A DNA stretch of 64,000 nt from Acidobacteriota bacterium (GCA_016208495.1 JACQXX010000037.1:1-64000); one strand, 5' to 3'. Counted from the first letter of the stretch, positions 45,927-64,000 are shown. Translations and numbers: made by a program. The notes: generated from the letters alone by a model not told the origin.

Positions 45927-46075
45927 TTGAACCTTCACCCTCATTCCTTACCCAATATCTCAGAAAACTTATGACAAGGTACTTATCCAGTCATCTTGTC
46001 GTTCTACCCCAATCCGTCACTATAATCCAGGTTGCTGCCTCTGGCACGGGTGGATTATGATGCGCATTGGCTTTT

Positions 46076-46110: not shown

Positions 46111-46143
46111 TTTCTCTTGCGACCCCAACTCCCTCCCGTGGCC

Positions 46144-49100
46144 ATGCGAGTACCTGATTCCTCCTTCCTCCACCCATCCTTCCACTTTCTGGCTCGACTC
46201 TGCCTGGCTGCTTTCTGCGTGCTGGTGTGGATGATGACCTCGCCGTCGGTGGCATTTGCCCAATACCGGTTTGACACCTGGACCACCGACGATGGGCTGC
46301 CGCAGAACGCAGTCTTTGCAGTGACGCAAACACGTGACGGATACCTCTGGTTGACAACACTTGATGGACTGGTGCGGTTTGATGGGGTGACGTTTACGGT
46401 GTTCAATAAGGGCAATTCCAGGGGATTGACAAGTCATCGGTTTTCGGCGCTTTTTGAAGATTCTGACGGGACGCTCTGGATTGGCACCATTGACGGTGGT
46501 TTAACACGATATCGCGATGGTGTCTTCACGACCTTCACCAAGGTTGATGGGTTGCCGCATGATGGAGTGCGGGCGATCCAGGGCGATTTGAACGGGGATT
46601 TGATCATCACGACGGATGGAGGCTTTGCCTACTGGCGCGGGGGGCGTCTCGTGGCTGATCCAGAGCAACTCGATTCTGATCGGGCGGTATTGTATGTGAG
46701 TCCGACGGGTACACGCTGGCGGTGGGATGAACAGGGAGTTCATCGGATGACGGGGCGGACCGCGACCTTTCCGATCCAGTTCCCGCATCGAAAAAACATC
46801 AACCTCACTTTAATTGAAGACCGGCAGGGGAACCTCTGGGTTGGGGCCTACAATGATGGGATCTATTGCATTTCAGGGGACAGGCTCACTCATTTCACGA
46901 CGAGCGACGGGTTACCTGCCGGGCGACTCATTCTTCCACGGTGCCAGGATCGGACCGAGGGCATCTGGTTTAGCGCGGAAGACTGGCTTGGCAATCTTCC
47001 ATCCCGGTTGCTGTTGTTTAAAAATGGACGATTTTCAACTTACCCCACGTCGTTGCTCGTCAAGACCATTTTTGAAGACCGTGAGGGAACACTCTGGATC
47101 GGCACCAATGGGCAAGGCTTGAATCGCCTGACGCATCAATTCATCACGACCTATTCAACCGCCAATGGATTGGTCAGCAATAACGTCTATCCTATCTACC
47201 AGGACCGCGCCGGCAATATCTGGATTGGTGCCTTTGGTGGCGTGAGTCGGTTCAACGACGGCGTTTTTACCAACTACACGGTGAAGGACGGGTTGCTCTC
47301 GCCCAATGTGCAGGCATTCTGTGAAGACGATGCCGGGCGGTTGTGGATGGGCGGAAGGCCAAGCTATTTTCAGAATAGCCAGTTTCATCTTCCACTCGGT
47401 GACATCCCTTTCAACGATTACGTCTGTTATTCGATTTATCAAGATCGTTCCGGAGTACTCTGGTTTGGAACACACCGTGGGCTGGTCAAATACGATCATG
47501 GGAAGACGCTCTTTCTGACGGTTGAAGATGGATTACCAGGGAGCAATGTCTCAGCCATTCATCAGGACCGTCAGGGCGTGTTGTGGTTTGCTACCAGCGG
47601 AGGCATCGCACGGCTGGAAAATGGCAAATTTACCGCACTCACGGTCAAGGACGGATTGACCAGTAATTTTGTGCGCTGTATTTATGAAGATGCCGACGGT
47701 GTGCTCTGGTTTGGCACCTATGATGGGGGACTCAGCCGGTACCAAGCCGGACGGTTTACCAGCTACACGACCAGAGAGGGGCTTCATAACAACGGGGTTT
47801 TTCAAATCCTCGAAGATGATCGCGGTAATTTTTGGATCAGTTGTAACCAGGGAATTTACCGGGTGAGCCGGGCGCGACTCAACGATTTGGCCGCCGGGAA
47901 GGTTCAGACTGTTACATCCATTGCCTATAACAAACAAGATGGCCTGCTCAACATCGAATGTAATGGTGGACGGCAACCAGCCGGAATCAAAGCCCGCGAC
48001 GGGAAACTCTGGTTTCCGACTCAGCAGGGCGTTGCCGTTATCAACCCGGAAGCCGTGCCGACAAACCCGCTCGCGCCACCAGTGCGGATCGAAACCTGTA
48101 CCCTTGACCGGAAACTCGTTCCTTTTCGTGATAACCTCCAGGTCAATCCAGGCCAATCCAACCTGGAGATCAAGTACACGGGGTTGAGTTTTATCAAGCC
48201 CGAACAGGTGCGTTTTAAGTATCAATTGATCGGACAGGATCCGGATTGGGTTGATGTCGGCACGCGACGCACCGCGAATTATTCCTACTTGCCGCCTGGG
48301 GGCTATACGTTCAAAGTCACCGCCGCCAACAGCGACGGCGTGTGGAATCCTGTCGGCGCCGAACTGCACATTGTCGTGCTGCCAAGGTTTTATCAAACCT
48401 GGTGGTTTCGAGTGCTCGCGGTGCTGACGCTGGTGGGGATTGTTGGGGTGGCGTTCAAAATCCGGCTTGATCAAGTTGAGCGCGCCCGTCGGGTGCAGGA
48501 AGCCTTCTCTCGCCGCTTGATTGATTCACAGGAACAGGAGCGCCAGCGCATCGCCGCCGAATTGCACGACAGTCTGGGGCAAAATCTGCTGGTCATTAAA
48601 AACTATGCATTGATGGGGCTCAATGCTGCCCAGAATGATAATCCAATGCGCGAGCATCTGGCCGAAATCTCCGACGCGGCCACGCTGTCTATTGATGAAG
48701 TTCGCCAAATTGCACATAACCTGCGGCCCTATCAATTGGAACGGCTGGGGCTGACCAATACATTGCAGGCGATGCTGAGGCAAATTGCCAATGCTTCGGA
48801 TATCGGCTTTGACTGCGAAATTGATCAAATTGACGGATTGCTCTCAAAAGAAGGGGAGATTGGTCTCTATCGTATCGTGCAGGAAGCCCTCAACAATATT
48901 CTGAAACATTCTCAAGCCACTGAAGCTGTCGTCCGAGTCAAACTGGCCGGCAACGAAATCCGAATCACGATTGCAGATAATGGGTGCGGGTTTACGGTCG
49001 AGCCAGAGGGCAGGGCTGAATTGCAAAAACGCGGGTTTGGCTTGACGGGGAGCGTCGAGCGCGTGAGGATGCTGGGCGGAACGCAAACCATCCATTCGGC

Positions 49101-49164
49101 GCCCGGTCAGGGTACGACCATTTCCATCACCATCTCCACAAACCAACATGTCAACCGAAAGTGA
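46144..49164 (+). CDS. Two-component sensor histidine kinase with extracytoplasmic propeller
   Basis: 1006 aa if started at ATG 46144, giving a signal segment HFLARLCLAAFCVLVWM; the frame also allows ATG 46057. Outside are about twelve propeller repeats (DRAGNIWIGAFGGVSRF, EDREGTLWIGTNGQGLNRL), the two-component regulator propeller, then a Y_Y_Y domain (EIKYTGLSFIKPEQVRFKYQ, PGGYTFKVTAANSDG). A membrane helix at about residues 755-775 leads to a HisKA_3 domain, with the phospho-acceptor His808 in RIAAELHDSLGQ, and a HATPase domain (EALNNILKHSQAT, ADNGCGF, GFGLTGSVERV). Such kinases resemble the BACON/HTCS sensors of polysaccharide or surface signals. The stop overlaps the response regulator start by 17 bp, so the two are partners. 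Confidence 0.92.
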   Translation: MRVPDSSFLHPSFHFLARLCLAAFCVLVWMMTSPSVAFAQYRFDTWTTDDGLPQNAVFAVTQTRDGYLWLTTLDGLVRFDGVTFTVFNKGNSRGLTSHRFSALFEDSDGTLWIGTIDGGLTRYRDGVFTTFTKVDGLPHDGVRAIQGDLNGDLIITTDGGFAYWRGGRLVADPEQLDSDRAVLYVSPTGTRWRWDEQGVHRMTGRTATFPIQFPHRKNINLTLIEDRQGNLWVGAYNDGIYCISGDRLTHFTTSDGLPAGRLILPRCQDRTEGIWFSAEDWLGNLPSRLLLFKNGRFSTYPTSLLVKTIFEDREGTLWIGTNGQGLNRLTHQFITTYSTANGLVSNNVYPIYQDRAGNIWIGAFGGVSRFNDGVFTNYTVKDGLLSPNVQAFCEDDAGRLWMGGRPSYFQNSQFHLPLGDIPFNDYVCYSIYQDRSGVLWFGTHRGLVKYDHGKTLFLTVEDGLPGSNVSAIHQDRQGVLWFATSGGIARLENGKFTALTVKDGLTSNFVRCIYEDADGVLWFGTYDGGLSRYQAGRFTSYTTREGLHNNGVFQILEDDRGNFWISCNQGIYRVSRARLNDLAAGKVQTVTSIAYNKQDGLLNIECNGGRQPAGIKARDGKLWFPTQQGVAVINPEAVPTNPLAPPVRIETCTLDRKLVPFRDNLQVNPGQSNLEIKYTGLSFIKPEQVRFKYQLIGQDPDWVDVGTRRTANYSYLPPGGYTFKVTAANSDGVWNPVGAELHIVVLPRFYQTWWFRVLAVLTLVGIVGVAFKIRLDQVERARRVQEAFSRRLIDSQEQERQRIAAELHDSLGQNLLVIKNYALMGLNAAQNDNPMREHLAEISDAATLSIDEVRQIAHNLRPYQLERLGLTNTLQAMLRQIANASDIGFDCEIDQIDGLLSKEGEIGLYRIVQEALNNILKHSQATEAVVRVKLAGNEIRITIADNGCGFTVEPEGRAELQKRGFGLTGSVERVRMLGGTQTIHSAPGQGTTISITISTNQHVNRK

Positions 49165-49801
49165 ACTGCACATTATCATTGCCGATGATCACCCAATCTT
49201 TCGGCGCGGGCTGCATATGATTATCGAAGCCGATCCAGGGCTAAAAGTCGTGGCTGAAGCCGATGACGGGGCGGTGGCGCTGGCCGAAGTCAAACGGCTT
49301 CAACCACACGTGATTGTGCTTGATATGGATATGCCCGTGCTCGACGGGATGGCTGTCGCGCGCGAGATCCTTCAGCAGCGCTGGCCAGTCGAGGTGGCCT
49401 TTCTGACTATGCACAAGGAAGAAGCCATCTTCAATGCGGCACTTGACCTGGGTGTGAAAGGCTATGTGGTCAAAGACAGTGCGGCCACCGAAATCATTGG
49501 CTGCATCAAAGCGGTTGCGGCTGGACAACGTTTTATCAGCCCGGTGCTTTCCGGCTTTTTGCTCAACCGGGTTTCTCCGGGGACACCGCACACACCTTCT
49601 GGTCTCAGCGCCCTGACGCCAGCCGAGCGACGCGTTTTGCGCTTGATTGCCGACGGCAAACTGAACAATGAGATTGCCACTGAACTTTTCGTCAGCGTCC
49701 GCACCGTCGAGCATCACCGTTCGAACATCTGCTCGAAATTGGGGCTCAACGGCAAACACGGGCTACTCAGGTTTGCCCTGACGCACAAATCGGAAATTTA
49801 G
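49148..49801 (+). CDS. NarL/FixJ family response regulator
   Basis: 217 aa. The receiver domain (1-125) has the acidic pair Asp13-Asp14 (IIIADDHP), phospho-acceptor Asp59 (VIVLDMDMP), Thr in FLTMHK and Lys in YVVKDS, so it should be phosphorylatable. The LuxR-type helix-turn-helix is at about 150-212 (LTPAERRVLRLIADGKLNNE, then VSVRTVEHHRSNICSKLGL). Overlap with the upstream histidine kinase marks a cognate pair. The direct targets are unknown; the surface-protein genes downstream are candidates. Confidence 0.95.
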   Translation: MSTESELHIIIADDHPIFRRGLHMIIEADPGLKVVAEADDGAVALAEVKRLQPHVIVLDMDMPVLDGMAVAREILQQRWPVEVAFLTMHKEEAIFNAALDLGVKGYVVKDSAATEIIGCIKAVAAGQRFISPVLSGFLLNRVSPGTPHTPSGLSALTPAERRVLRLIADGKLNNEIATELFVSVRTVEHHRSNICSKLGLNGKHGLLRFALTHKSEI

Positions 49802-50469: not shown

Positions 50470-50545
50470 TAGGTGCCACCACCTATATGAAATTAGGTGG
50501 CGGCACCGATGTGCAAGGGGTTCTTCTCGTCTAATAATTCCGCCT
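50470..50545 (+). promoter_or_regulatory. Covarying hairpin element, copy B, in the leader of the receiver gene
   Basis: Stem GGTGCCACCACCTA (50472-50485) with TAGGTGGCGGCACC (50494-50507), an 8-nt loop, an A-C mismatch at position 7, then CGATGTGCAAGG and TAATAATTCCGCC. It lies about 95 bp before the receiver start. Copy C holds the same place before the receiver relic at 60106. A structured RNA leader or a DNA-binding palindrome would both fit. Confidence 0.7.
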
Positions 50546-50600
50546 GGAGTCTTCCACCTTTTCGACCAAACCTCGCAAACAAGGAATGTTAGGAGAAATG

Positions 50601-50963
50601 ATGTTGTTGATCGTTGATGACCATGCCCCAATGCGCCGGCTCATTCGGCGAGTGACTGGTGATTTGGCCGACCGGATTGAAGAATGTGCCGCAGGGGAGG
50701 CAGTGTTGGCAGCGTATGAACAGCATCATTTCGGTGAGGCCGATTGGGTACTGATGGATGTCGAGATGGGAGGGATGGACGGGTTGACCGCGACACGGGA
50801 GTTGCGAGCGGCGCATCCGGAAGCCCGCATCATCATCGTCACCAAATATAACGATGAGCAGTTGCGAGCGGCAGCCTTCCAAAATGGGGCGTGCGGCTTT
50901 GTCCCCAAAGAAAATCTGCTGGAGTTACGTGCGCTGCTGAGCGGCGCCAGTCAAAACCCCTGA
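50601..50963 (+). CDS. Stand-alone receiver domain response regulator
   Basis: 120 aa from ATG 50601 (MLLIVDDHAPMRRL), with AGGAG at 50591-50595; ATGs at 50586 and 50598 are too close to that site. Only a receiver domain is present: Asp6-Asp7 (IVDDH), phospho-acceptor Asp53 (VLMDVEMGGMDG), Thr in IIVTKYN and Lys in FVPKENL. There is no output domain, so it acts as a phosphate shuttle or by protein contact. It lies 112 bp upstream of the 2898-residue secreted protein gene. The same pairing, with the receiver reduced to a relic, is seen at 60106-60281, so the two genes moved or duplicated together. Confidence 0.92.
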   Translation: MLLIVDDHAPMRRLIRRVTGDLADRIEECAAGEAVLAAYEQHHFGEADWVLMDVEMGGMDGLTATRELRAAHPEARIIIVTKYNDEQLRAAAFQNGACGFVPKENLLELRALLSGASQNP

Positions 50964-51075
50964 AATCATCCAGACCAATACTGAAATAATTGCCTTCTAA
51001 GAAGCTATCTTGTTGAAAAACAAGTGGTTAATATTTTCATAATTCATGATTTGTATTGAGAGGAAGTGGTTGGGT

Positions 51076-54000
51076 ATGTTACGCAAAATCCTGGGAATGA
51101 GCTTGTTTGCCGTTGTGATCGTCAGTTCAAGTCTTGGACTTACCTCAACTTCAGCCCGCAAGTCGGTTGATACCAATCTCAAATCAGTGACCCGTCTCCA
51201 GCAAGACCAGCGAGGGAAACTTCTTCACCCTCTGGCGCCAGATGGATTTTTGATCGGGCGCAATGCTCCCGCCATGGATGTGCGGTCATTGGTGAAGCCC
51301 GTTTCCAGAACTCAGGTTCAAACGGTGACAGCGCAACCATTTCGGGAACTGCAATCGCAACTCCTTGTTTCAAACGGCCTGTTGCCCCAGCAGATCGCCC
51401 CAGGGCTTGATCGCCGGGTGACGGGTGTTCCCGAAAATATGGAAATTGAATGGACAGTTGCCCCCTGGACAGATCCGACTCAGCTTCAACTTGAGTTTCC
51501 TGAGGTTGAGTGGGTTGAGTATGACGGCGACCAGAATTTGATTCTGCACACAGCGGCTGAAGATATCCTGATTCGGGATGCCAAAGCCTGGCAGGAAGTG
51601 TCATACCAGACGATTGAAGTTCCACTCACGGTTGATTTTTTGGGTGAAGGCCGGGTGAGTATCACACCTGGGGTGTATTCGACCGCCGATGTGCTTCAGA
51701 TTGGGTTGAGAGTGGTGTCGGCGTCGCGGGCAGCGACCGGGGGTGGTTTTACGACCAATGCCACGTTGACGGTGACCAATGGCAATGACAGTGGTTCGGG
51801 GTCATTGCGCGACCGGATTACGGCGGCGGCCTCGGGCGACACGATCCAGTTTTCCGGCGTGACGACCGTGACATTGACGTCGGACGAACTCTTGATCGAC
51901 AAAAATTTGACCATCAACGGCGGCACCAATGGGGTGACGATTACGCGTTCCGGAGCGACGCAATTCCGCATTTTCAATATCAGCAGCGGGACGGTTTCGC
52001 TGACCAAACTGACAATCAGCAACGGCAATAATCCAGGACAGGCCGGCGGGATCCAAAACTCCGGGACCTTGACCATGACCGAGTGTGTGGTGACTGGAAA
52101 CACCTCGCCACAGGCCGGCGGCGTGCAAAACGACAGCGTGATCACGCTCAACCGATGCACGATTGCCAATAATACTGCGACCGGTGCGGGTGGCGGGTTG
52201 GTCAGTTTTGGAACATCAAATACCCTGACCAACTGTACGATCAGCAACAATCAGGCCGCCAGTGGTGGTGGTGGCTTGAGCATCTCAGCCGGGACATTGA
52301 CCATGACCAACTGCACGGTGGCATACAATCAGTCTACGAGTGGTTCCGGTGGTGGGATAAGTTTTGCAAATGGGCTGACGGTTGTCTTAAAAAACACCAT
52401 TGTTGTCAGCAATACGGGTTCATCCAATCAAAACATTAATGGAACGCTTGATGCGTCCAGTTCTTACAATCTTGTCGGTACCTCCGGGTCAGGTGGACTC
52501 GTCAACGGTACCAATGGAAACCAAACCGGTGTGACCAGCCCTGGATTGGATGTACTGGCCAGCAACGGTGGGTATACACAAACCATTGCGCTGCTTGCTG
52601 GCAGTCCGGCACTGGATAAAGGCGCCGCCGCCGCTGGGGTCACAACCGATCAGCGCGGTCAGACACGACCCACGAACATTACCACGATCCCGGCGGCATC
52701 TGGGGGGGACGACAGCGACATTGGCGCTTTTGAGATAATTCCGAGTTGTTCAACCCTGTCATTTAGCCCGTCATCGTTGCCAGGTGGCACAGTTGGATTA
52801 AGTTACTTGCAAACGATTTCAGCCAGCGGTGGAACGGCACCCTACACCTATGCGGTGACCAGCGGAAGTCTTCCGCCTGGGTTAACGTTGCTCAGTGATG
52901 GAACGTTAAGCGGCGTGCCGACGACCAATGGCTCGTTTAGCTTTACCGTAACCGCAACCTATGGGTTTGGATGTACCGGAAATAAAGCATACACACTCGT
53001 CATTGCCGCCTGTACTCCAGGAACATCATTTACGGTCAATGACCTGGGGGATGCCCCAGATGCCAATCCAGGGGATGGCGTCTGTCAAACGGCAGGTGGG
53101 GTTTGTACGTTACGTGCCGCGATTCAGGAAAACAACGCCGTGCCGAGCTGTGGCAGGACCATTAGTTTTAGCGTGATGGGCACCATCAATCTGACAAGCG
53201 CCTTACCTGACCTTTCAGCCAGTGTCACGCTCAACAATTCGCTGGGAGAAATAACCGTCAATCGGAGTTCCGGCGGAAATTATCCGATTTTCAATGTCGC
53301 CAGTGGTATCGCGGTGACGATCAATACCCTGGTGATCAGTAATGGCCTTGGGGTTGAAGGTGGCGGTATCCGCAACGCCGGGTCCTTGACCTTGACCAAT
53401 TCCATGTTGATAGGCAATGGGACGGTGGGTGCCAGACCGGTGACAGGTGGCGGCGGCGGTATTTTTAATACTTCCACTGGCGTACTGACCCTGAATCGGT
53501 GTGCGCTGGTCAATAACACCGCCACGGGTCAAGTTGGGAATGGTGGTGCTGGCAGCGGCGGCGGCGGCGGCGGCCTTGGCGGAGCGGTTTATAACAATGG
53601 CGGCACGGTCAGCATTACCAACACCACATTTTCCGGCAATCAGGCCGTTGGCGGCGCTGGCGGGAATAGTGGCGGTGGGTGTTGTGTCGGCGGCGGTGGT
53701 GCCGGCGGTGGCAATGGTGGTGCTGGTGGAATTGTCATACCTACCTCAACTGCACCGCAATCAGGTGGTTTTGGTGGTGGCGGCGGCGGCGGCGGGAACG
53801 GTCGAGATGGTGCTGCTGGTGGACGCTACGGCGGCGGCGGCGGCGGTGGGTATGGCGCCGGTTTTGGAACAAGCGGTGCTGGTGGTGGTTTCTTAGGCGG
53901 TGCGGGAGCAAATTCAAGCTCTTCATTCTCACGAAACGGTGCCGGCGGCGGCGGTGGTGGCGTGGGTGGTGCCATTTACCAGAACAGCGGCAGTATGACG

Positions 54001-57000
54001 CTGGTTAATGTGACGATTGCCAGCAATACCGCCATGGGTGGCGCCGGTGGAACAAATTCATCAAATGTGGCCCAAAACGGTGCGGCTGGCAGCAGCCGAG
54101 GCGGTGGTATTTACAATGAAGCCGGAACGCTGACACTCCAGAATTCCATTGTTGCTGGCAACACCGCGCAACAGGCAAGTTTTGCCGACTGCGACAGCAA
54201 CAGTACCGCGATTGTGACCAATGGCTACAATCTGTTTGGCAGTGGAACTGGCTGCCCAACCGGCGGAACACAAGACCAAACCGTGACACCGGCGAATGTG
54301 TTCACGACAGCACTTAGTCCATTGGGATATTTTGGCGGCGGACTCACCCAGACTCATCGGTTGTTGACTGGAAGCCCGGCGATTGACAAGGGAAGTGCTT
54401 TCACCGGTGTGAGTGTTGACCAGCGGAGCCGACCACGCCCGGTTGACGTTCCTGGCGTTTCTTCAGCTTCAGGTGGCAACGCCAGTGACATCGGGGCTTA
54501 TGAAGTCCAAAACTGTGTCGGTGGGGTAACGATTTCCCCAACTTCATTGCCTCTGATTGGATCCAACGTGCCATATAGTCAGACATTTACGGGGAGTGGA
54601 GGGACGTCACCATACTTTTTCAGTGTCAGTTCTGGGGCGTTACCGACTGGGTTAGCTTTATCTTCGGATGGGATCTTGTCAGGAACTCCAACCACTGATG
54701 GAACTTATAATTTTACAATTCTGGTTTCAGACAACAACGGGTGTTTCTCAACTCAGGCATACACGCTGGAAGTATCGTGTCCGACAATCACCACACATCC
54801 GGTCAGTCAGGTTATTTGTGACGGCGGTTCAGCCACGGTGTCGGTGACAACGACTGGAACTGGGGTGACGTATCAGTGGCGCAAGGGCGGTGTTGATATT
54901 AACGGGGCGACGAACAGCAGCTATACCATACCAGTCTTTACCGCAGCCGATGCCGGTAGTTACGACGTGGTCGTGGATACGGCGGCCTGCGCGCCAATTA
55001 CCTCAAACCCAGCGACGTTGAGCTTGCTTGGGCCAACCGTGATGACCAGCACCATGCCGTTATGGGGCGGACGGTTGAACGGCGCCCAGTTTGAAGTTGG
55101 GACCAATGGCGCCTCGGCTTCCGAATCGCCCGACAAAGCCTTTGACGGAACGTTTTCCAAATCGTTGATTCGATACACCGCCAATGTCGGATATATCGTT
55201 TCGCCAATCAATTGCAGTCCATCGGGGCGAGTCATCAACCGGTTTCGAGTTTATACCGCGAATGATTTTCCAGACCGTGATCCGGCCAGTTATGAGTTGT
55301 ATGGAACGAACAGTCCGATTTCCGGCAACGGGCCCTTTGCCGCCAATCTCTTTACCTTAATCAGCTCTGGCAGCCTGGCGTTACCATCCGGGCGCAATAC
55401 CAGTACGCTTGACGATGCCAATTCCCAGGAAATCAGCTTTTCCAATACCACGCCGTATCAGACATTTATGCTGATTTTCCCAACCGTGAAGAATGCTGGG
55501 GCTGTTCTCAGCACACAGGTGGCTGAAATCAAATTTTATCCGGAAAACTCTCAACCCACGCTTTCGACCACACCGGTTTCGCTGTTGCAAGGGGCAACAA
55601 TCGCTGGGAGTGCGATTGGAACCGCCGGTCCTGGGACATCCCAGGCAGCAAATACGCTGACCATCGCTGTGAGCAGTGATGGAACGAATTTCGGTTCATC
55701 AGCGACACTCAACGGAGTCACGATCAACGATCTGGTGGTGGCTGCCAATGGGACAGTGACGGCCACGATTGCCGCGACTTGTTCAGCTTCCAATGCCAGT
55801 TTTACTGTCAGAGTGACAAATAACCAGAATCAGAGCGCAACTGCAACGCTGAATGTAACGGTGACGGCCAATACTGCTCCGACCTTGAGCTATAACAACG
55901 ATTCGGTCGCCAACGGCAGTGCACTTGTGATTAACCCGGCGACCGGGCCCAGTGATGATGGAACGATTTCGAGCATTGTCGTTCAGGATCAGGGGACGTA
56001 CACCGGAACAATCTCGGTTAACAATACAAATGGTGTGGTTTCAATTTCCAATGCTGGTCCAGTTGGAACCCACACCATCACGATCCGGGCCACTGATGAT
56101 TGTACTCTGACAAGTGACGCGACGTTTACTCTCACGGTGACCTCGGTTGGAACGGCTGTTTCTTCAATCATTCGTGCTTCCAGCAATCCGGCCTGTGCCA
56201 GTACCTCAGTGAGCTGGACGGTGACGTTTGTGGGATCAGTCACGGGAGTAACCGCGTCGAATTTTGCGCTTGCTGGTGGCACCGGAGCCAGTATTACCAA
56301 CGTCACCGGGTCTGGAACAACCTGGACCGTCACTGCCAATACTGGAACCGCAGCCGCAGTTTCACTTGGGCTGAATATGGTCAATGACACCGGGGTAAAT
56401 CCGGTTTTGACCAACCTTCCGTTCACAAGTGGCCAGACCTATACGGTGAATGGTGTTCCAACCACGGCGAGCGCGGGGTCAGATCAAACCCTCTGTCTGG
56501 CAAGTCCGACAGCCACGCTGGCCGCCAATGCACCATCAACCGGAACAGGATTGTGGTCAGTTGTCACTGCGCCGGCTGGTGGCTCAACGTTGTCAAATCA
56601 GTTTAGTGTCGTAACTTCGCCCACGGCGACATTTACCCCTAACCCTGGGGCCGTCGGTAGCTATACCTTGCGGTGGACGATTTCAAATGCGCCCTGTACG
56701 GCGTCAACTGATGATGTGGTGATTACCTATCAGGCGTCCCCCACTCCTTCAAATGCCGGGCCGGACCAGACGTTGTGTGTTGGAACAAACGCCACGCTGG
56801 CCGCCAACAACCCGAGCGTGGGAACTGGACAATGGTCAGTTGTCAGCGGGCCGAGTACATCCAGTGCCCAATTTAGCAACACCGCAAGCCAGTCGGCTAC
56901 GTTCACACCAGCCGGAGGCGCCGGGACGTACACCTTGCGGTGGACGATTTCAAATTCACCTTGCGCTCCGTCAACCGATGATGTGGTCTTGACCTACCAG

Positions 57001-59772
57001 GCGGCACCGACCACGTCGAATGCCGGACCGGATCAGACTCTGTGTGTGACCAATCCGGCGGCGACTCTGGCTGCCAATGCCGCATCAACCGGAACGGGGC
57101 AGTGGAGTGTTGTTACGGCACCACCTGGAGGTTCAACTGCTTCTGGTCAGTTTAGCAATGTCAATCTGGCAACTGCGACGTTTACTCCAGCTCCAACCGT
57201 AACTGGCACCTACACCTTGCGGTGGACGATTTCAAATTCACCTTGTACTGCTTCGACTGACGATGTGGTTTTGACCTATCAGGCAACACCAACCACGTCA
57301 AATGCCGGGCCGGATCAGGCCATCTGTGCTGGTTCAAGTGCCACGTTGGCCGCCAACAATCCGACCGTCGGAACCGGGCAATGGTCGGTCGTCAGCGGAC
57401 CAAGTACGTCAAGTGCGCAATTTAGCAACACAGCAAGCCGGACAGCGACCTTTACGCCTGGTGGTGGAGCTGGGGTCTATACTCTGCGGTGGACGATTTC
57501 AAATTCACCTTGCACTCCGTCAACCGATGATGTGGTGGTGACAGTCAATTCAGCTCCTTCCGTCAATCCAGTGTCGCCAACCGCGATTTGCAGTGGCGGA
57601 ACGACGAGCATCGCGCTGACCAGCACGCCCGGCGGAGCCAGCTTTAGCTGGACGATTGGAACGGTGACGGGAAGCGTGACCGGACAGTCAGCCGGTTCGG
57701 GCAGCAGCATCGCCCAGACCTTAACCGGAAACGGAACAGTTACTTACGTGGTGACCGGAACCCTGAGCGGTTGCCCGAGCGCACCCGTCAACATCGTCCA
57801 AACCGTGAATCCAAACCCGGTGGTGAATCCAGTTTCGCCAACCGCGATTTGCAGTGGTGGAATAACGAACATCGCGTTGACCAGCACACCATCAGGTGCC
57901 AGCTTTAGCTGGACGATTGGAACAGTGACGGGAAGCGTGACGGGACAAACGGCAGGTTCGGGCAGCAGCATCGCCCAGACCTTAACCGGAAGCGGATCAG
58001 TGACGTATGTGGTAACAGGCACGCTGAGTGGCTGTCCGAGCGCGCCGGTCAACATCGTGCAGTCCGTGACTGGACCGCCATCGGTCAATCCAGTGTCGCC
58101 AACGGCAATTTGTAGTGGCGGAACAACCAACATCGCCCTGACCAGTACGCCAGGTGGAGCGACGTTTAGCTGGACGATTGGAACAGTGACTGGATCAGTC
58201 ACGGGACAAACGGCAGGTTCGGGCAGCACAATTGCCCAGACCTTAACCGGAAGTGGGACAGTGACTTATGTTGTAACGCCATCCTTGAGTGGTTGTACTG
58301 GAACGCCGGTCAACATCGTGCAAACCGTCAATCCAACACCATCAGTCAACCCGGTATCGCCAACCGCGATTTGTAGTGGCGGAACGACCAGCATCGCCCT
58401 GACCAGTACTCCAGGTGGAGCGAGCTTTAGCTGGACGATTGGAACAGTGACCGGAACCGTGACCGGACAGTCAGCCGGTTCGGGCAGCAGCATCGCCCAG
58501 ACCTTAACCGGAAACGGGACAGTGACCTACGTGGTAACTGGGACGCTGAGCGGTTGCCCGAGCGCACCAGTCAACATCGTTCAATCTGTCAATCCAGCGG
58601 CAACGACCAATGCCGGACCAGACCAGACGGTGTGTGCCGACAACCCGGCGGTTACCCTGGCGGGTGTGATTGGCGGTGGTGCCGCGACCGGAACGTGGAG
58701 TGGTGGAGCGGGAAGCTTCAGCCCGGATGCAAACACCCTCAACGCGGTCTACACGCCATCAACTGGTGAAATCACGGCTGGAACGGTGACGTTGACGCTG
58801 ACAACCGACGATCCATCTGGACCGTGCGGTGCGGTGAGCGATACGGTGACCATTACAATCGTGAATTGTACGGTGGTGCAGTATTCGCTGATGGTGGCGG
58901 ATACAACCAATAACCGGATTCAGGGTTTTGACGGAACGAACTGGGCTGTGATCGGAGTCGGCACGGTGGGTTCTGGACCGGGTCAGTTCCGGTTGCCGGA
59001 AGCCGTGGCCTTTGACCTGACGGGACGAATCTACGTGGCGGACACCGGAAACAATCGAATCCAATGGTCAACCGATGGTGGAACGACCTGGGCGGACTTT
59101 GCGACTAATGGAACTGGAACCAATCAGGTGAAAGCCCCGCAAGGACTGACGCTTGATTCAGAAGGCAACCTGTATGTTTCCGACACTGGAAACGGACGGG
59201 TCATGCGCTTTGACGACGGTAATCCTGGAACCGGAGTGGTGATTGCCAGCAATGGTACCGGAGGCGGTCAGGTCGGAAGCCCACGTGGGCTGGCGATTGA
59301 TGCCACGTTCCGCTTATTTATTACTGACGAAACCAACAGCCGAATTTTGCGCATTACAAATGCCCACACAACGGTGGCGACAGCCAGCGGAACGATCCTG
59401 GCAACCTCTGGAACAGGGATGAACAAGGTCCAGAATCCACAGGGCATTACGATTGATTCCAATGGGACACTCTTTATTGCTGATACTGGTAACTCACGCA
59501 TCCTGCGCTGGGTGAATGCCAACCCGAACAATGCCAGTACCATGGCCTTGATCGGAAGCCAGCTTGGGCAGGTCAATCGTCCTGAAGGAGTTACCGTGGT
59601 GACTTTCACCAGTGGACCATTTGCCGGCGGTCCAATGTTGATTGTCGGAGACACCTCAAACAATCGAATTCAAGGCCGGTATATCCCAACCGGACAGTGG
59701 AATCTGGTCGGTTCGCCAAACAACATCGGCAGTGGAACAGGGCAATTCCGCTCACCGAGTAAAATCCAGTAA
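51076..59772 (+). CDS. Giant secreted multidomain protein (beta-helix, PKD-like repeats, NHL propeller)
   Basis: 2898 aa; ATG 51076 (MLRKILGMSLFAVVIVSSS, GAGGAAG 10 nt upstream) agrees with the start of the paralogue at 60281. After the signal peptide comes a 170-residue domain shared with the paralogue. Then a right-handed beta-helix of the choice-of-anchor Q type (GSGSLRDRITAA at 240 to DIGAFE near 550), a He_PIG-type Ig domain, a second helix with a long glycine-rich part (about 820-1010) ending DIGAYE, another He_PIG domain, an Ig domain with QWRKGG near 1260, four PKD-like units beginning NAGPDQ/AGSDQ (1800-2155), four 87-residue repeats beginning NPVSPTAICSGG (2157-2508), and a C-terminal NHL propeller (2600-2898). 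A surface adhesin or matrix-like role is likely. No sorting signal is seen. Confidence 0.85.
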   Translation: MLRKILGMSLFAVVIVSSSLGLTSTSARKSVDTNLKSVTRLQQDQRGKLLHPLAPDGFLIGRNAPAMDVRSLVKPVSRTQVQTVTAQPFRELQSQLLVSNGLLPQQIAPGLDRRVTGVPENMEIEWTVAPWTDPTQLQLEFPEVEWVEYDGDQNLILHTAAEDILIRDAKAWQEVSYQTIEVPLTVDFLGEGRVSITPGVYSTADVLQIGLRVVSASRAATGGGFTTNATLTVTNGNDSGSGSLRDRITAAASGDTIQFSGVTTVTLTSDELLIDKNLTINGGTNGVTITRSGATQFRIFNISSGTVSLTKLTISNGNNPGQAGGIQNSGTLTMTECVVTGNTSPQAGGVQNDSVITLNRCTIANNTATGAGGGLVSFGTSNTLTNCTISNNQAASGGGGLSISAGTLTMTNCTVAYNQSTSGSGGGISFANGLTVVLKNTIVVSNTGSSNQNINGTLDASSSYNLVGTSGSGGLVNGTNGNQTGVTSPGLDVLASNGGYTQTIALLAGSPALDKGAAAAGVTTDQRGQTRPTNITTIPAASGGDDSDIGAFEIIPSCSTLSFSPSSLPGGTVGLSYLQTISASGGTAPYTYAVTSGSLPPGLTLLSDGTLSGVPTTNGSFSFTVTATYGFGCTGNKAYTLVIAACTPGTSFTVNDLGDAPDANPGDGVCQTAGGVCTLRAAIQENNAVPSCGRTISFSVMGTINLTSALPDLSASVTLNNSLGEITVNRSSGGNYPIFNVASGIAVTINTLVISNGLGVEGGGIRNAGSLTLTNSMLIGNGTVGARPVTGGGGGIFNTSTGVLTLNRCALVNNTATGQVGNGGAGSGGGGGGLGGAVYNNGGTVSITNTTFSGNQAVGGAGGNSGGGCCVGGGGAGGGNGGAGGIVIPTSTAPQSGGFGGGGGGGGNGRDGAAGGRYGGGGGGGYGAGFGTSGAGGGFLGGAGANSSSSFSRNGAGGGGGGVGGAIYQNSGSMTLVNVTIASNTAMGGAGGTNSSNVAQNGAAGSSRGGGIYNEAGTLTLQNSIVAGNTAQQASFADCDSNSTAIVTNGYNLFGSGTGCPTGGTQDQTVTPANVFTTALSPLGYFGGGLTQTHRLLTGSPAIDKGSAFTGVSVDQRSRPRPVDVPGVSSASGGNASDIGAYEVQNCVGGVTISPTSLPLIGSNVPYSQTFTGSGGTSPYFFSVSSGALPTGLALSSDGILSGTPTTDGTYNFTILVSDNNGCFSTQAYTLEVSCPTITTHPVSQVICDGGSATVSVTTTGTGVTYQWRKGGVDINGATNSSYTIPVFTAADAGSYDVVVDTAACAPITSNPATLSLLGPTVMTSTMPLWGGRLNGAQFEVGTNGASASESPDKAFDGTFSKSLIRYTANVGYIVSPINCSPSGRVINRFRVYTANDFPDRDPASYELYGTNSPISGNGPFAANLFTLISSGSLALPSGRNTSTLDDANSQEISFSNTTPYQTFMLIFPTVKNAGAVLSTQVAEIKFYPENSQPTLSTTPVSLLQGATIAGSAIGTAGPGTSQAANTLTIAVSSDGTNFGSSATLNGVTINDLVVAANGTVTATIAATCSASNASFTVRVTNNQNQSATATLNVTVTANTAPTLSYNNDSVANGSALVINPATGPSDDGTISSIVVQDQGTYTGTISVNNTNGVVSISNAGPVGTHTITIRATDDCTLTSDATFTLTVTSVGTAVSSIIRASSNPACASTSVSWTVTFVGSVTGVTASNFALAGGTGASITNVTGSGTTWTVTANTGTAAAVSLGLNMVNDTGVNPVLTNLPFTSGQTYTVNGVPTTASAGSDQTLCLASPTATLAANAPSTGTGLWSVVTAPAGGSTLSNQFSVVTSPTATFTPNPGAVGSYTLRWTISNAPCTASTDDVVITYQASPTPSNAGPDQTLCVGTNATLAANNPSVGTGQWSVVSGPSTSSAQFSNTASQSATFTPAGGAGTYTLRWTISNSPCAPSTDDVVLTYQAAPTTSNAGPDQTLCVTNPAATLAANAASTGTGQWSVVTAPPGGSTASGQFSNVNLATATFTPAPTVTGTYTLRWTISNSPCTASTDDVVLTYQATPTTSNAGPDQAICAGSSATLAANNPTVGTGQWSVVSGPSTSSAQFSNTASRTATFTPGGGAGVYTLRWTISNSPCTPSTDDVVVTVNSAPSVNPVSPTAICSGGTTSIALTSTPGGASFSWTIGTVTGSVTGQSAGSGSSIAQTLTGNGTVTYVVTGTLSGCPSAPVNIVQTVNPNPVVNPVSPTAICSGGITNIALTSTPSGASFSWTIGTVTGSVTGQTAGSGSSIAQTLTGSGSVTYVVTGTLSGCPSAPVNIVQSVTGPPSVNPVSPTAICSGGTTNIALTSTPGGATFSWTIGTVTGSVTGQTAGSGSTIAQTLTGSGTVTYVVTPSLSGCTGTPVNIVQTVNPTPSVNPVSPTAICSGGTTSIALTSTPGGASFSWTIGTVTGTVTGQSAGSGSSIAQTLTGNGTVTYVVTGTLSGCPSAPVNIVQSVNPAATTNAGPDQTVCADNPAVTLAGVIGGGAATGTWSGGAGSFSPDANTLNAVYTPSTGEITAGTVTLTLTTDDPSGPCGAVSDTVTITIVNCTVVQYSLMVADTTNNRIQGFDGTNWAVIGVGTVGSGPGQFRLPEAVAFDLTGRIYVADTGNNRIQWSTDGGTTWADFATNGTGTNQVKAPQGLTLDSEGNLYVSDTGNGRVMRFDDGNPGTGVVIASNGTGGGQVGSPRGLAIDATFRLFITDETNSRILRITNAHTTVATASGTILATSGTGMNKVQNPQGITIDSNGTLFIADTGNSRILRWVNANPNNASTMALIGSQLGQVNRPEGVTVVTFTSGPFAGGPMLIVGDTSNNRIQGRYIPTGQWNLVGSPNNIGSGTGQFRSPSKIQ
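57545..58600 (+). repeat. Four 261-bp tandem repeats inside the giant secreted protein
   Basis: Unit starts at about 57562, 57823, 58084 and 58345, each 261 bp (87 residues) apart, with long identical blocks such as TTTAGCTGGACGATTGGAAC. The high nucleotide identity points to recent expansion or ongoing homogenisation. Confidence 0.85.
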
Positions 59773-59981
59773 CCAGACGGAAGGCATCAAGCGGAAGACA
59801 TTGGGCTTTGAGGTTGAAGGTTCAGTGTCTGAAGGGATGAAGATGAGGGGTGAAGAATCTCTTTTGCTTCATCCCTTTTTTCTTGTCTCGGGACCAACGC
59901 GTAGTGGGCTCAACCTATTGAATTGATTTCATTCCTCATCCTTTGAATTTAGACCGGTTCCTCCGGTCCCTGGCCCAAAAA

Positions 59982-60055
59982 TAGGTGCCACCACCTATAT
60001 GAAGTAGGTGGTGGCGCCGATGTGCATCTGGTCCTCTTGCCTGATAATCCAGTCT
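59982..60055 (+). promoter_or_regulatory. Covarying hairpin element, copy C
   Basis: Stem GGTGCCACCACCTA (59984-59997) with TAGGTGGTGGCGCC (60005-60018): 13 Watson-Crick pairs and one G-T pair, 7-nt loop, then GATGTGCATC and TGATAATCC. It precedes the receiver relic exactly as copy B precedes the intact receiver. The rest of 59773-60280 holds no other gene. Confidence 0.7.
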
Positions 60056-60105
60056 GATGTCGCTACTCGCTTTCCGAACTCTACAAAACAAGGACTATAA
60101 AAAGA

Positions 60106-60153
60106 AATGGTGATGTTTGTGATTGATGGCCCTGACCTGAGGCGTTTCATCTG
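60106..60153 (+). pseudogene. Receiver-domain relic (15 codons)
   Basis: ATG 60106 starts MVMFVIDGPDLRRFI and then a stop. Compared with the intact receiver at 50601 (MLLIVDDHAPMRRLI), it keeps the first strand and helix start but has lost one of the two acidic residues and everything after residue 15. It follows the hairpin element and an AAGGACT leader, as the intact gene does. Confidence 0.75.
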
Positions 60154-60280
60154 AAAGAAAAACAGATTGATTTAGCCGCCAAAGGATTGATGAATCAACA
60201 GAAATCCTATTCACCCAACCCTTTTCGCAAAAAGGCGAGACACCACGATTCAATTGAATATTTAGAGGGAGTTACAGGCC

Positions 60281-63200
60281 ATGCTACGCCAGATACTGGG
60301 GATTTGTCTGTTCGCGATTACCATATTGAGTTTCAGTATTGGACTCACATCAATTTCAGCCTACAAAGCGGTGGATACCAGTTTGAATCCGGTAGTTCAT
60401 CTGCAGAAGGATCAGCCACGTGGTTTAGCGTTGGGATCGGTTTCCAACCTGCTTCAGCCAAAAGCGCAGGATATCCGCGCCATGATAAAACCGGTTTCGC
60501 GCCTTCAAACTCAGGGAGTTACCTCACACCTCTTTCCTGAGGTGCAATCTGAACTGCTCCGTGCGGGAGGCACCCTGGAACAGCAAATCGCACCAGGACT
60601 TGAACGGCGCATCAGTGGGATTCCGGAAAGCGCCGCCGTGGAGTGGACCGTTGCTCCCTGGGCGGATCCCGGCCAGATTGAACTGGAGTTTCCAGGTGTT
60701 GAGTGGGCTGAGACGCTGGCTGACCAGACGCTGGTTTTGCACATGGGAGGGAGCAAGGAAATTCGGCTTTCAGAGGCCGTAGCCCGGCAGGAAGGACCGA
60801 ACCAAACCCTGGAGGTGCCAGTCTCGGCGGTCTATTACGGTGGTGGTCGAGTTGGAATCTCGGTTGGCATCTATTCAAGGAGCGAACCACTCGTGGTCTC
60901 AACGCGGGTGTTTGTCTCAAATGCCACGTTTAACGTGACCAATCTCAATGATTCAGGATCAGGTTCACTCAGGCAGGCGATTACCGATGCTAATAACAAC
61001 GGATCCGCTGCTGATACCATTACCTTTCAGTCTGGACTGACCGGAACAATCTCGCTGTCGAGTAGCCTGCCGCTCATCAGTGGAACATTAACGATTACCG
61101 GGCCTGGCGCCTCAACGCTGACGGTCAACGGCGGGAGCTTCACAATTTTCAGTGTGGCTAACGGTATTACCTTGCAGATGAGCGGTTTACGGGTGACAGG
61201 CGGAGGTGTCTCCAGCGGGCTCAATGCGGCTCACCTGGATGTTGGCGGAGGCACCGCAACCCTTTCCAACTGTGAATTCTCTGGCGCCAATGGTACGGCG
61301 GTGGCCTCTTTTATTTCAATCACCATGACAAACTGCGCCATCATCAATGCCAGCCAATTTGGCTTGAGGAATGGACGCACGGCGGCGCTTACCAATGTGA
61401 CGATCAGTAACTGTGGAACAATTGGACTCGAATCATCATCAGGGGTGACGGTCTCAACCACGTTGGTGAATTGCACGATTGCCAATAATGCGTCAGTCGG
61501 TTATAGCGCGAATTTGCGAGCTGGGGAAACCCATTCCCTCACCTTAAAAAACACCATTATTGCAAATAATTTGAATCCTCAAATTCGGTTTATTTCAAAT
61601 GGCGGGACGTCCAACCTGACCTCGCAAGGATTCAATCTGCTGAGCGACAATAGTCTGTCGCCATCGGTTGCCAGTGACCTCCTCAATACCAATCCCATCC
61701 TGGCGGCATTGGCGAGCAACGGCGGAACGACCCAAACCCGCGCCTTACTCCCAGGCAGTCCCGCCATCAATGCCGGGACGGCAACCGGTGCTCCAACCAC
61801 CGACCAGCGTGGCATCAGCCGGGTTGGAACGACCGACATCGGTGCGTTTGAATCGCGTGGGTTTACGATGGCCCTGTCAAACGGGAACAACCAGAGCACG
61901 GCGGTGAATACAAGCTTTGCCACTCCATTGTCGGTGACGGTGAGCAGCGCCAATAGCGAGCCGGTCAACGGTGGGCAAGTCACCTTTACCCCGCCCGTAA
62001 GCGGTGCCAGTTGTACCATTGCCGGAAATCCGGCCACAATTTCGAGCGGTACCGCCACGACTGGCACCGTTACCGCCAATGGAACAACCGGTGGGCCATA
62101 CACGGTGGCGGCCAGCGCCCAAGGGGTTACAACCGGAGTCAATTTCAGCCTGACGAACAATGTGGCTGGGACGACGGTGAGTTCAATGAGCCGGGCTTCG
62201 ACCAATCCAGCCTGTATCAATACTTCGGTAAGCTGGACGGTGACCTTTGCCGCATCGGTGACGGGTGTAACGACGTCAAACTTCTCACTGGTGGGAGGAA
62301 CTGGCGCCAGTATCACGGGGGTAAGCGGTTCGGGAACAACCCGAACGGTAACGGCCAATACCGGAACGGCAGCGGCAACCCTGGGATTGAATATGGTCAA
62401 TGCGACGGGAGTGAGCCCCGGTCCGACGAATCTACCATTCACCGGCCAGACCTATACCGTCAACGGCAACCCGACGACGGCCAATGCCGGCTCTGATCAG
62501 GCGATTTGTAGTGGTTCGGCCACGCTGGCAGCCAACAATCCGTCAGTGGGAACAGGACAGTGGTCAGTTGTGAGCGGACCGAGTACGTCATCCGCCCAAT
62601 TTAGCAGCACATCAAGTCCAACGGCGACGTTTACGCCAGCCGGTGGGGCCGGAACGTACACCTTGCGGTGGACGATTTCAAATTCACCCTGCACGGCTTC
62701 GACCGATGATGTGGTCATCACCCTGGTATCAACCGTGGTCACCAACGGGAATGACAGCGGTGCCGGGAGCTTACGGCAGATCATTACCGATGCCTGCGCC
62801 GGGAGCACGATTACGTTCTCTGGTGTGACAACCGTGACCTTGACGACGGCGGAACTGGCGATCAACAAAAATCTGACCATCAATGGTGGTTCAGGTGTGA
62901 CAGTGACCCGGAGCACGGCTGGGGGAACACCGAATTTCCGGATTTTCAACATCACCAGCGGCAGCGTGGCGATGAACAATCTGACCATCAGCAATGGAAA
63001 TCAGACGCTTGGCGGCGGCGTGAGAGTTGACGCCGGCTGCAGTTTGAACCTGCAAACGTGTCTTGTTTCAGGAAATACCGCAACCGGGAATACGTCGGGT
63101 GATGGCGGTGGTGGGCTCTGGATTGCCGCCAATGCTGGAAATATTACAATCAACCAGTCAACGATTTCAGGGAATAGCTGTACCAATGCCAATGGATTTG

Positions 63201-64000
63201 GAGGAGGACTGCGGACCCAAGGTGCATTGAGCGGTGGTTCAACTTTAACCGTTACGAACTCAACCATTAACAATAATACGATTCAGACATCAGGTGCCGG
63301 TCTCTATATTGACGGTGCCGCCACCACGATGACGAACTGTACCATCAGTAATAACAGTGGTAACAGTTTGGGAGGTGGAATTCTGTTTAGTGCTTCGACG
63401 GCGACACTTACAAATGTGACTATTGCCAATAATAGTGCGAACAATGGTGGTGGAATTAGCAGCGGAGGTTCAACCATTACCCTCACCAATTGCCTGATTG
63501 CCCAGAACCAGGGCGCCGGTGGCGATATTGACGTGCAGGCAGCCATTACATCTTCAAGCTCGTTTAACCTGATTGGTGTAGATTTTCAGTTGACTGGTAT
63601 TACCAACGGCACCAATGGGAACCAGATTGGGACTCAGGCAAATCCAGTGATTCCACGCCTGGGCGGATTGGCTTCCAATGGCGGACCAACCCAAACCAGA
63701 GCCTTATTGCCTGGAAGCCCGGCGGTCAATGCCGGGACCAACGCCGGAGCGCCCACAACCGATCAGCGCGGGATTTCGCGGCCACAACAAAGCACAGTGG
63801 ATATTGGCGCCTTTGAATCGCGTGGCTTTACGATGGCGATTTCGAGTGGAAACAACCAGAGCACCCTGGCGAGTACAAACTTTACCAATCCTCTGGCAGT
63901 CACCGTGAGCAGTGCCAATAGTGAGCCGGTCAACGGTGGGCGGGTGACGTTTACCCCGCCCGGAAGCGGTGCCAGTTGTACGCTGGCTGGCAATCCAGCC
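60281..64000 (+). CDS. Giant secreted beta-helix protein, paralogue of the 51076 protein (3' end beyond window)
   Basis: From ATG 60281 (MLRQILGICLFAITILS, signal peptide) the frame is open to the last base of the window: 1240 codons, no stop. Residues 1-200 align with the start of the 51076 protein (for example LERRISGIPESAAVEWTVAP against LDRRVTGVPENMEIEWTVAP). A beta-helix of the choice-of-anchor Q type runs from GSGSLRQAITDANNNG (about 225) to DIGAFE (about 520). An Ig-like domain SRGFTMALSNGNNQS follows, then a GSAP-like segment shared with the paralogue (SMSRASTNPACINTSVSW, about 635), one NAGSDQ PKD-like unit, a second beta-helix (about 819-1178) and a second SRGFTMA Ig-like domain. 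The end is unknown. A shorter frame at 60187-60540 is out of phase with the homology and is not a gene. Confidence 0.88.
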   Translation, partial: MLRQILGICLFAITILSFSIGLTSISAYKAVDTSLNPVVHLQKDQPRGLALGSVSNLLQPKAQDIRAMIKPVSRLQTQGVTSHLFPEVQSELLRAGGTLEQQIAPGLERRISGIPESAAVEWTVAPWADPGQIELEFPGVEWAETLADQTLVLHMGGSKEIRLSEAVARQEGPNQTLEVPVSAVYYGGGRVGISVGIYSRSEPLVVSTRVFVSNATFNVTNLNDSGSGSLRQAITDANNNGSAADTITFQSGLTGTISLSSSLPLISGTLTITGPGASTLTVNGGSFTIFSVANGITLQMSGLRVTGGGVSSGLNAAHLDVGGGTATLSNCEFSGANGTAVASFISITMTNCAIINASQFGLRNGRTAALTNVTISNCGTIGLESSSGVTVSTTLVNCTIANNASVGYSANLRAGETHSLTLKNTIIANNLNPQIRFISNGGTSNLTSQGFNLLSDNSLSPSVASDLLNTNPILAALASNGGTTQTRALLPGSPAINAGTATGAPTTDQRGISRVGTTDIGAFESRGFTMALSNGNNQSTAVNTSFATPLSVTVSSANSEPVNGGQVTFTPPVSGASCTIAGNPATISSGTATTGTVTANGTTGGPYTVAASAQGVTTGVNFSLTNNVAGTTVSSMSRASTNPACINTSVSWTVTFAASVTGVTTSNFSLVGGTGASITGVSGSGTTRTVTANTGTAAATLGLNMVNATGVSPGPTNLPFTGQTYTVNGNPTTANAGSDQAICSGSATLAANNPSVGTGQWSVVSGPSTSSAQFSSTSSPTATFTPAGGAGTYTLRWTISNSPCTASTDDVVITLVSTVVTNGNDSGAGSLRQIITDACAGSTITFSGVTTVTLTTAELAINKNLTINGGSGVTVTRSTAGGTPNFRIFNITSGSVAMNNLTISNGNQTLGGGVRVDAGCSLNLQTCLVSGNTATGNTSGDGGGGLWIAANAGNITINQSTISGNSCTNANGFGGGLRTQGALSGGSTLTVTNSTINNNTIQTSGAGLYIDGAATTMTNCTISNNSGNSLGGGILFSASTATLTNVTIANNSANNGGGISSGGSTITLTNCLIAQNQGAGGDIDVQAAITSSSSFNLIGVDFQLTGITNGTNGNQIGTQANPVIPRLGGLASNGGPTQTRALLPGSPAVNAGTNAGAPTTDQRGISRPQQSTVDIGAFESRGFTMAISSGNNQSTLASTNFTNPLAVTVSSANSEPVNGGRVTFTPPGSGASCTLAGNPA

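What the first reader, a model, noticed from the sequence alone, without database searches (positions are those of the whole stretch)
50470..64000. Duplicated module: hairpin + receiver gene + giant secreted protein
The block 50470-51700 (hairpin copy B, stand-alone receiver, signal peptide and N-domain of the giant protein) is repeated in diverged form at 59982-60900, but there the receiver is a 15-codon relic. This links a receiver protein without output domain to a surface protein class.
Basis: seen in the sequence. Interest (0 to 1): 0.6.

Follow-up and report, generated by a model that had tools for sequence, protein, structure and literature searches.

The report
Sensor circuit driving giant secreted proteins
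The "hairpin" is really a double docking site for the DNA-binding regulator encoded next door; with it that regulator probably switches on a small signalling protein together with a giant secreted protein, and the same wiring recurs in dozens of related bacteria with different secreted proteins plugged in.

Summary
The duplication is real. Hairpin, receiver start and giant-protein N-domain at 50466-51783 recur at 59978-60945, with the receiver cut to 15 codons. But the "trio" is part of a larger conserved circuit, and the hairpin is not an RNA element.

In 162 genomes of the class (Blastocatellia by named relatives) the receiver forms a sharply separated subfamily of about 91 members. Of 70 loci with enough upstream sequence, 58 have the order propeller histidine kinase, NarL-type regulator, receiver. 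Of 85 downstream genes, 72 have a heuristic signal peptide; they are often very long, and their N-termini fall into about 40 groups.

The "hairpin" is two (sometimes three) tandem 16-bp dyads, GTR-N4-YAC, 22-24 bp apart. Half the loci match at 11/12 or better, against 1-2 expected. A -10-like hexamer sits at a fixed distance. The base flanking the dyad covaries best with residue 189, in the regulator's recognition helix, among 200 columns tested. So the dyads are very probably operators of the adjacent regulator. In the 8.4-Mb genome this operator type occurs three times, all in this window.

Best model: the kinase activates the regulator, which switches on receiver plus secreted protein; the receiver then feeds back on the kinase. 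The feedback step is inferred only.

The parts
46057..49164 (+). Propeller-type sensor histidine kinase (signal peptide, Reg_prop repeats, Y_Y_Y, HisKA_3, HATPase_c)
   Evidence: Pfam; conserved upstream of the regulator and receiver in 58 of 70 loci
49148..49801 (+). NarL/FixJ-type response regulator (Response_reg + GerE HTH); recognition-helix residue His189 (codon 49712-49714) in RTVEHHR
   Evidence: Pfam; residue 189 is the top column covarying with the operator base; codon checked
50470..50509 (+). Tandem operator array ('hairpin copy B'): dyads TAGGTGCCACCACCTA (50470-50485) and TAGGTGGCGGCACCGA (50494-50509), cores 50473-50482 and 50497-50506, 24 bp apart
50532..50538 (+). -10-like element TAATAAT, 35 nt from the start of the second dyad core (best hexamer AATAAT at 36)
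   Evidence: sequence; positional peak over 45 loci
50586..50963 (+). Stand-alone receiver (single-domain response regulator, 125 aa as called; likelier start 50598 or 50601)
   Evidence: Pfam Response_reg E 1.9e-22; phosphoacceptor residues invariant in 89 members
51046..59772 (+). Giant secreted protein 1 (2908 aa; likely start 51076): DUF7948-like N-domain, choice-of-anchor Q domain, Ig-like repeats, C-terminal NHL repeats
59982..60020 (+). Second operator array (copy of the promoter): dyads at 59982-59997 and 60005-60020, 23 bp apart
60042..60048 (+). -10-like element TGATAAT of the second promoter, 34 nt from the start of the second dyad core
60107..60154 (+). Relic of the receiver gene: MVMFVIDGPDLRRFI*
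60281..64000 (+). Giant secreted protein 2 (start; continues past the window): N-domain 53% identical to that of giant 1, beta-helix, choice-of-anchor Q
34415..34451 (+). Third operator array of the same type (TAGGTAGAACTACCTA ... TAGGTAGCTCTACC) with a -10-like TATTAT at 34476-34481; no evident gene behind it

Best explanation
It is a self-contained two-component output circuit. A membrane-bound propeller histidine kinase and its NarL-type regulator are encoded first. The phosphorylated regulator binds tandem 16-bp dyads, about two DNA turns apart, that end directly upstream of the -10 box, and activates a promoter in front of the receiver and the giant secreted protein. A duplicate of promoter, receiver and N-domain drives a second giant protein in the window; its receiver has decayed, so one receiver copy evidently suffices or the second is dispensable. 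The receiver keeps every phosphorylation residue, and being made only when the circuit is on, it most likely feeds back on the same kinase (phosphate sink or direct kinase inhibitor), giving a threshold or shut-off for a very costly secreted product. Shown by sequence statistics: gene order, operator arrays, fixed -10 position, and the match between recognition helix and operator. Inferred: binding, activation and co-transcription. Inferred with least support: the feedback role (I put it near 0.5 by itself; the operator reading near 0.93).
For: Gene order: kinase plus NarL-type regulator upstream of the receiver in 58 of 70 loci with enough sequence; also in Verrucomicrobiales, an Ignavibacteria MAG and other families of the phylum. 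Operator: pairs of GTR-N4-YAC with at least 11/12 matches 22-24 bp apart in 44 of 88 upstream regions, against 1.5 expected from shuffles and about 1 of 88 in 249 control regions; spacing peaks sharply at 22-24; none in 52 regions upstream of the kinase. Features not used in the fit: AAAAT between dyads and TATAAT-like hexamers at +36 (19 of 45 loci) or +59/+60 (14 of 45), against 0-3 at other offsets. Reader of the operator: of 200 regulator columns, residue 189 in the recognition helix has the highest association with the base flanking the core (His to G, Asn to A, Thr/Lys/Gln to C; 27 non-redundant loci), and loci outside that set follow the rule. The operator follows the regulator even where the receiver is absent or further downstream. 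Regulon: the window's operator type occurs three times in 8.4 Mb, all in this window. Receiver under constraint: Asp12, Asp58, Lys108 in 89/89, Thr/Ser86 in 89/89. Receiver to secreted-protein gap at most 130 nt in 56 of 72. Precedents for the feedback: PMC9430884, PMC4214558.
Against: No experiment: binding, transcription and phosphotransfer are all untested. Half of the receiver loci lack an array at the 11/12 threshold; some have degenerate ones, some have the array after the regulator because the receiver is not the first gene, some have no kinase pair nearby. The GTR-N4-YAC consensus was derived on the same loci. Kinase-receiver covariation was inconclusive (4 of top 50 pairs in the docking surfaces versus 1.9 expected; regulator control 4 versus 0.6). 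The receiver is optional: related kinase/regulator pairs in the same genome lack it. Residual phylogenetic signal in the covariation test cannot be excluded.
Confidence: 0.7

Rival explanations
1. The hairpin acts as RNA: an attenuator, terminator or riboswitch-like leader of the receiver/giant operon.
For: Both copies fold with z below -4.6.
Against: No Rfam match; no U-tract behind it (sequence); arms are individually dyadic and come in 2 or 3 copies; the four central bases of the two dyads repeat directly (2.24 of 4 versus 1.54 +/- 0.14 between loci) more than they pair (1.80 versus 1.53 +/- 0.14); the element lies upstream of the -10 box and so would not be transcribed; its sequence follows the regulator's recognition helix.
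Confidence: 0.05
2. Same operator circuit, but the receiver is an output protein: once phosphorylated it acts on export, assembly or turnover of the secreted protein, or on another partner, rather than on the kinase.
For: The receiver is usually the gene directly before a secreted protein (56 of 72 gaps at most 130 nt). Single-domain regulators acting on effectors are known (PMC12802240 and PMC4671073, abstracts).
Against: The secreted proteins have no common domain or N-terminus, so a shared direct target among them is unlikely; secreted proteins leave the cytosol where the receiver is.
Confidence: 0.3
3. The receiver is a hitch-hiking remnant of a NarL-type regulator without function; the association is inherited linkage only.
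For: It is missing or decayed in some copies (relic at 60107-60154; own-genome pairs C80 and C19 lack it).
Against: 89 of 89 members keep the phosphoacceptor and catalytic residues; the subfamily is sharply separated from ordinary regulators (about 91 hits below E 1e-33, next ones above 1e-27); 77% identity to a homologue in another family, higher than for its regulator (67%) or kinase (46%).
Confidence: 0.08
4. The dyads are a dispersed repeat or mobile element (REP-like) that happens to lie near these genes.
For: Three copies in one 26-kb stretch.
Against: Only three copies in 8.4 Mb; sequence differs between loci while position relative to the receiver and the -10 box is fixed.
Confidence: 0.02

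Closest known systems
Osp of Rhodobacter sphaeroides (single-domain regulator inhibiting the kinase CckA, induced by CtrA; PMC9430884)
   Same: A stand-alone receiver whose gene carries a site for the circuit's own regulator, forming a feedback loop
   Different: Osp acts on a hybrid-kinase phosphorelay ending in CtrA; here a propeller kinase with a NarL-type regulator, the receiver sits next to a secreted protein gene, and inhibition is not shown
One kinase, two receivers 'phosphate sink' motif (Sinorhizobium meliloti chemotaxis; PMC4214558)
   Same: One kinase next to an output regulator and a second receiver with intact phosphoacceptor
   Different: The chemotaxis output is not transcriptional (own knowledge); phosphotransfer here is untested
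Bacteroides hybrid two-component systems (HTCS; PMC11253607 abstract)
   Same: Membrane sensor kinase coupled to a transcription factor for extracytoplasmic functions; HTCS sensors also use Reg_prop/Y_Y_Y domains (own knowledge)
   Different: HTCS hold kinase and DNA-binding regulator in one chain; here kinase, NarL-type regulator and receiver are three proteins
NarL/FixJ (LuxR-HTH) response regulators of E. coli and relatives (NarL, RcsB, VraR)
   Same: Receiver plus GerE HTH; dyadic sites, often several per promoter (own knowledge)
   Different: Dyad core GTR-N4-YAC in tandem at 22-24 bp with a fixed -10 distance; a readable flank code per locus

Membership tests
Single-domain response regulator (CheY-like receiver) | Receiver domain only, no output domain | tested here: met
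   Only PF00072 (E 1.9e-22) in 125 aa; no NCBIfam model listed reaches its cut-off
Single-domain response regulator (CheY-like receiver) | Phosphoacceptor Asp, acidic pair, Thr/Ser, Lys | tested here: met
   D12 89/89, D58 89/89, T/S86 89/89, K108 89/89; aromatic switch residue F/Y105 in 86/89
NarL/FixJ response regulator (49148-49801) | Response_reg plus GerE HTH | tested here: met
   PF00072 E 4e-25 and PF00196 E 2e-16
NarL/FixJ response regulator (49148-49801) | Binds dyadic DNA sites upstream of its targets | tested here: inconclusive
   Predicted strongly by covariation and position; no binding experiment
Osp-type feedback regulator | Gene preceded by a site for the circuit's own response regulator | tested here: met
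   (predicted site)
Osp-type feedback regulator | Inhibits the cognate kinase | not testable with these tools
   Needs biochemistry; covariation attempt inconclusive
Phosphate sink receiver | Phosphorylated by the same kinase as the output regulator | not testable with these tools
   Gene neighbourhood only
Hybrid two-component system (HTCS) | Kinase and DNA-binding regulator in one chain | tested here: not met
   Separate kinase and GerE-type regulator
Intrinsic terminator / structured RNA leader | Stem followed by U-tract, or match to a known RNA family | tested here: not met
   No U-tract; no Rfam hit; element upstream of the -10 box

The most novel reading that the evidence does not exclude
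A widespread, unreported modular system in Blastocatellia (with members in other phyla): one sensor, one regulator with its own readable operator code, one receiver brake, and one exchangeable secreted effector. Effectors are swapped while the control cassette stays insulated through changes at regulator residue 189 and the operator flank, and the receiver is a dedicated limiter for giant secreted proteins.
Probability: 0.4. Interest if true: 0.75.

Novelty: new variant of a known kind. Interest (0 to 1): 0.62.

Why it matters
Regulons of response regulators in uncultivated phyla are almost never known. Here the operator, its promoter geometry and a one-residue recognition code can be read from sequence, so the targets of many kinase/regulator pairs can be predicted and tested. 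It also gives a conserved natural case of a receiver encoded beside the costly product its circuit controls, a clean place to test feedback by single-domain regulators, and it ties hard-to-annotate giant secreted proteins to specific sensors.

Tried and rejected
RNA hairpin reading: rejected (see rivals). Hairpin as dispersed repeat: rejected. A first generic dyad scan was significant in only 26 of 88 loci and was replaced by the GTR-N4-YAC scan. A scan upstream of the kinase seemed to find eight arrays, but these came from truncated kinase hits; with complete kinases there were none in 52. The search of named genomes with the receiver alignment failed for lack of conserved words and was done with the single protein. 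Mirror-tree within genomes and kinase-receiver covariation gave no clear answer. The DUF7948-type N-domain paralogues elsewhere in the genome (C93, C175) have no receiver and no array in front, so the N-domain is not itself the conserved partner. Paper searches found no description of the module; subscription journals are mostly not held, so absence there is weak evidence. One call used a made-up accession and returned nothing.

Full report
What was checked. blastn finds 72% identity over 163 nt (about 50466-50627 against 59978-60136), covering the hairpin, the leader and the first codons of the receiver, and two further blocks in the N-domain of the giant proteins. The N-domains are 53% identical as proteins, and a search of the whole genome with one finds the other at E 5e-61. 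The receiver relic at 60107-60154 is exactly 15 codons.

What surrounds it. Directly upstream lie a propeller-type histidine kinase (46057-49164: Reg_prop, Y_Y_Y, HisKA_3, HATPase_c) and a NarL/FixJ-type regulator (49148-49801). A search with the receiver found paralogues in the same genome at C96 and C139. C96 is followed by a 1636-aa secreted protein; C139 follows a kinase and a NarL-type regulator and precedes secreted proteins.

The receiver is a family. In 39 relatives it gave 29 matches at E below 1e-15. A profile of 28 of them searched against 162 genomes of the class gave about 91 members below E 1e-33 and then a gap to 1e-27, where ordinary NarL-type regulators begin. In a phylum sample of 297 genomes, 13 had members, four of them outside the class. 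Named genomes with members are Pyrinomonadaceae and other Acidobacteria MAGs, Verrucomicrobiales and an Ignavibacteria MAG; the Verrucomicrobiales and Ignavibacteria loci also have kinase, regulator, receiver and a large downstream ORF. That the class is Blastocatellia is inferred from these names. That the window's family is that of Chloracidobacterium is a guess from genome sizes and contig counts.

Gene order. I fetched 89 oriented loci (with the window and two own-genome loci). Of 70 with at least 4.2 kb upstream, 58 have kinase and regulator upstream on the same strand, one has the regulator only, and 11 have neither. The next gene downstream carries a heuristic signal peptide in 72 of 85. 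With equal settings and genes of at least 200 aa it is 89% of 56 against 46% of 406 other genes in the same loci (p 3e-10), and these genes are longer (median 650 versus 358 aa, p 1e-10). The heuristic is lenient, so only the contrast counts. Their N-termini fall into 40 groups among 65 proteins and their domains are diverse. So what is conserved is the control cassette, not the secreted product.

The hairpin is an operator. In most loci I read, the sequence in front of the receiver holds two or three copies of a 14-16 bp dyad. They share a core GTR-N4-YAC, with locus-specific flanks. Pairs matching at least 11 of 12 positions at 22-24 bp spacing occur in 44 of 88 upstream regions; shuffles predict 1.5 and control regions about 1. 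Over all spacings from 11 to 59, only 21-24 stand out. Where the receiver is not the first gene after the regulator, the array often lies right behind the regulator instead, and it is also found behind related regulators that have no receiver. None lies in front of 52 complete kinase genes, so the kinase/regulator pair is probably not under its own control.

Independent support. Positions that played no part in the fit are conserved too: AAAAT between dyads, and a TATAAT-like hexamer starting 36 nt after the second core in 19 of 45 loci and, where a third degenerate dyad intervenes, at 59-60 nt in 14 of 45, with 0-3 at the other offsets. This is the geometry of an activator touching polymerase next to the -10 box. 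In the window the -10-like elements are TAATAAT (50532) and TGATAAT (60042), at 35 and 34 nt.

Who reads it. I asked which of 200 variable regulator columns best predicts the base flanking the core, in 27 regulators less than 80% identical. Residue 189, in the recognition helix (RTVE-x-HR), came first (z 4.9; next 3.9). The rule of thumb is His to G, Asn to A, Thr, Lys or Gln to C, and Asn with an upstream His (IHxR) to T, with exceptions. It holds in loci not used to find it: own-genome C80 (His, TAGGTG) and C19 (Asn, TAAGTA), Verrucomicrobiales L207 (Asn, TGAGTA) and L204 (Thr, CCGTGG), and L191 (IHYR plus Asn, CGTGTG). This is strong but computational evidence that each regulator reads the array next to it.

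Regulon. The window's regulator has His189 and its sites are TAGGTR. In the 8.4-Mb genome the tandem TAGGTR-type array occurs three times, all in this window: 34415, 50470 and 59982. The first stands between two convergent genes with no evident product; it may be the relic of a lost module or the promoter of an unrecognised RNA. It could also serve the His189 regulator at C80, whose own array is of a slightly different form.

How it probably works. The periplasmic propeller sensor phosphorylates the regulator; the regulator binds the dyads and switches on receiver plus giant protein 1, and giant protein 2 from the copied promoter. The receiver keeps its whole active site in 89 of 89 members, so it most likely takes part in phosphotransfer. 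Because it is made only when the circuit is on, feedback on the same kinase is the simplest role. Osp, whose expression is activated by CtrA and which inhibits CckA, is a precedent (PMC9430884), as is the one-kinase-two-receivers sink that creates thresholds (PMC4214558). My attempt to see kinase-receiver docking by covariation was inconclusive, so a role on another partner remains open.

Limits. Everything rests on sequence; most genomes are MAGs; about half of the loci do not reach the array threshold; the tree structure of the data is only crudely removed in the covariation test; and the literature library lacks most subscription journals.

Noticed in passing
34415-34451: A third array of the same operator type with a -10-like TATTAT at 34476, between convergent genes and without an evident gene behind it; possibly a lost module or the promoter of a small RNA.
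   Followed up: partly
L026:3500-5300 (contig C37, about 67.5-69.3 kb, beyond the window): The open frame of giant protein 2 breaks into overlapping frames inside nearly identical Ig-like repeats; either an assembly error in the repeats or real frameshifts.
   Followed up: no
34806-34900 and 50310-50400: A diverged intergenic repeat of about 90 bp (CCATTTTGGAATG...AGTCAAGTAATTCAAT...ACTACTGACTAC) occurs twice.
   Followed up: no
44972-45051 and 34310-34360: Runs of the 8-bp unit GGWGACAA between genes, partly complementary to 50024-50059.
   Followed up: no
49915-49939 and 50073-50097: Perfect 25-nt inverted repeat (GGGCATAAGCGCCAGGAGAAGGAAA), 133 nt apart, in the gap between regulator and receiver.
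   Followed up: no
L070:5219-19501: The closest relative of the receiver (77% identity) lies in a different family, with regulator 67% and kinase 46% identical, but the giant protein behind it has an unrelated N-terminus: effector exchange under a kept control cassette, possibly horizontal transfer.
   Followed up: partly
L187, L188, L196: In some loci outside the class the receiver faces the kinase/regulator pair or precedes the regulator, so gene order is not fixed there; arrays are still present.
   Followed up: partly
41101-44976: Another large secreted protein (DUF7933 and NHL repeats) upstream of the kinase shares part of its C-terminal NHL region with giant protein 1 (71% over 230 nt); no TAGGTR-type array lies in front of it.
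   Followed up: no
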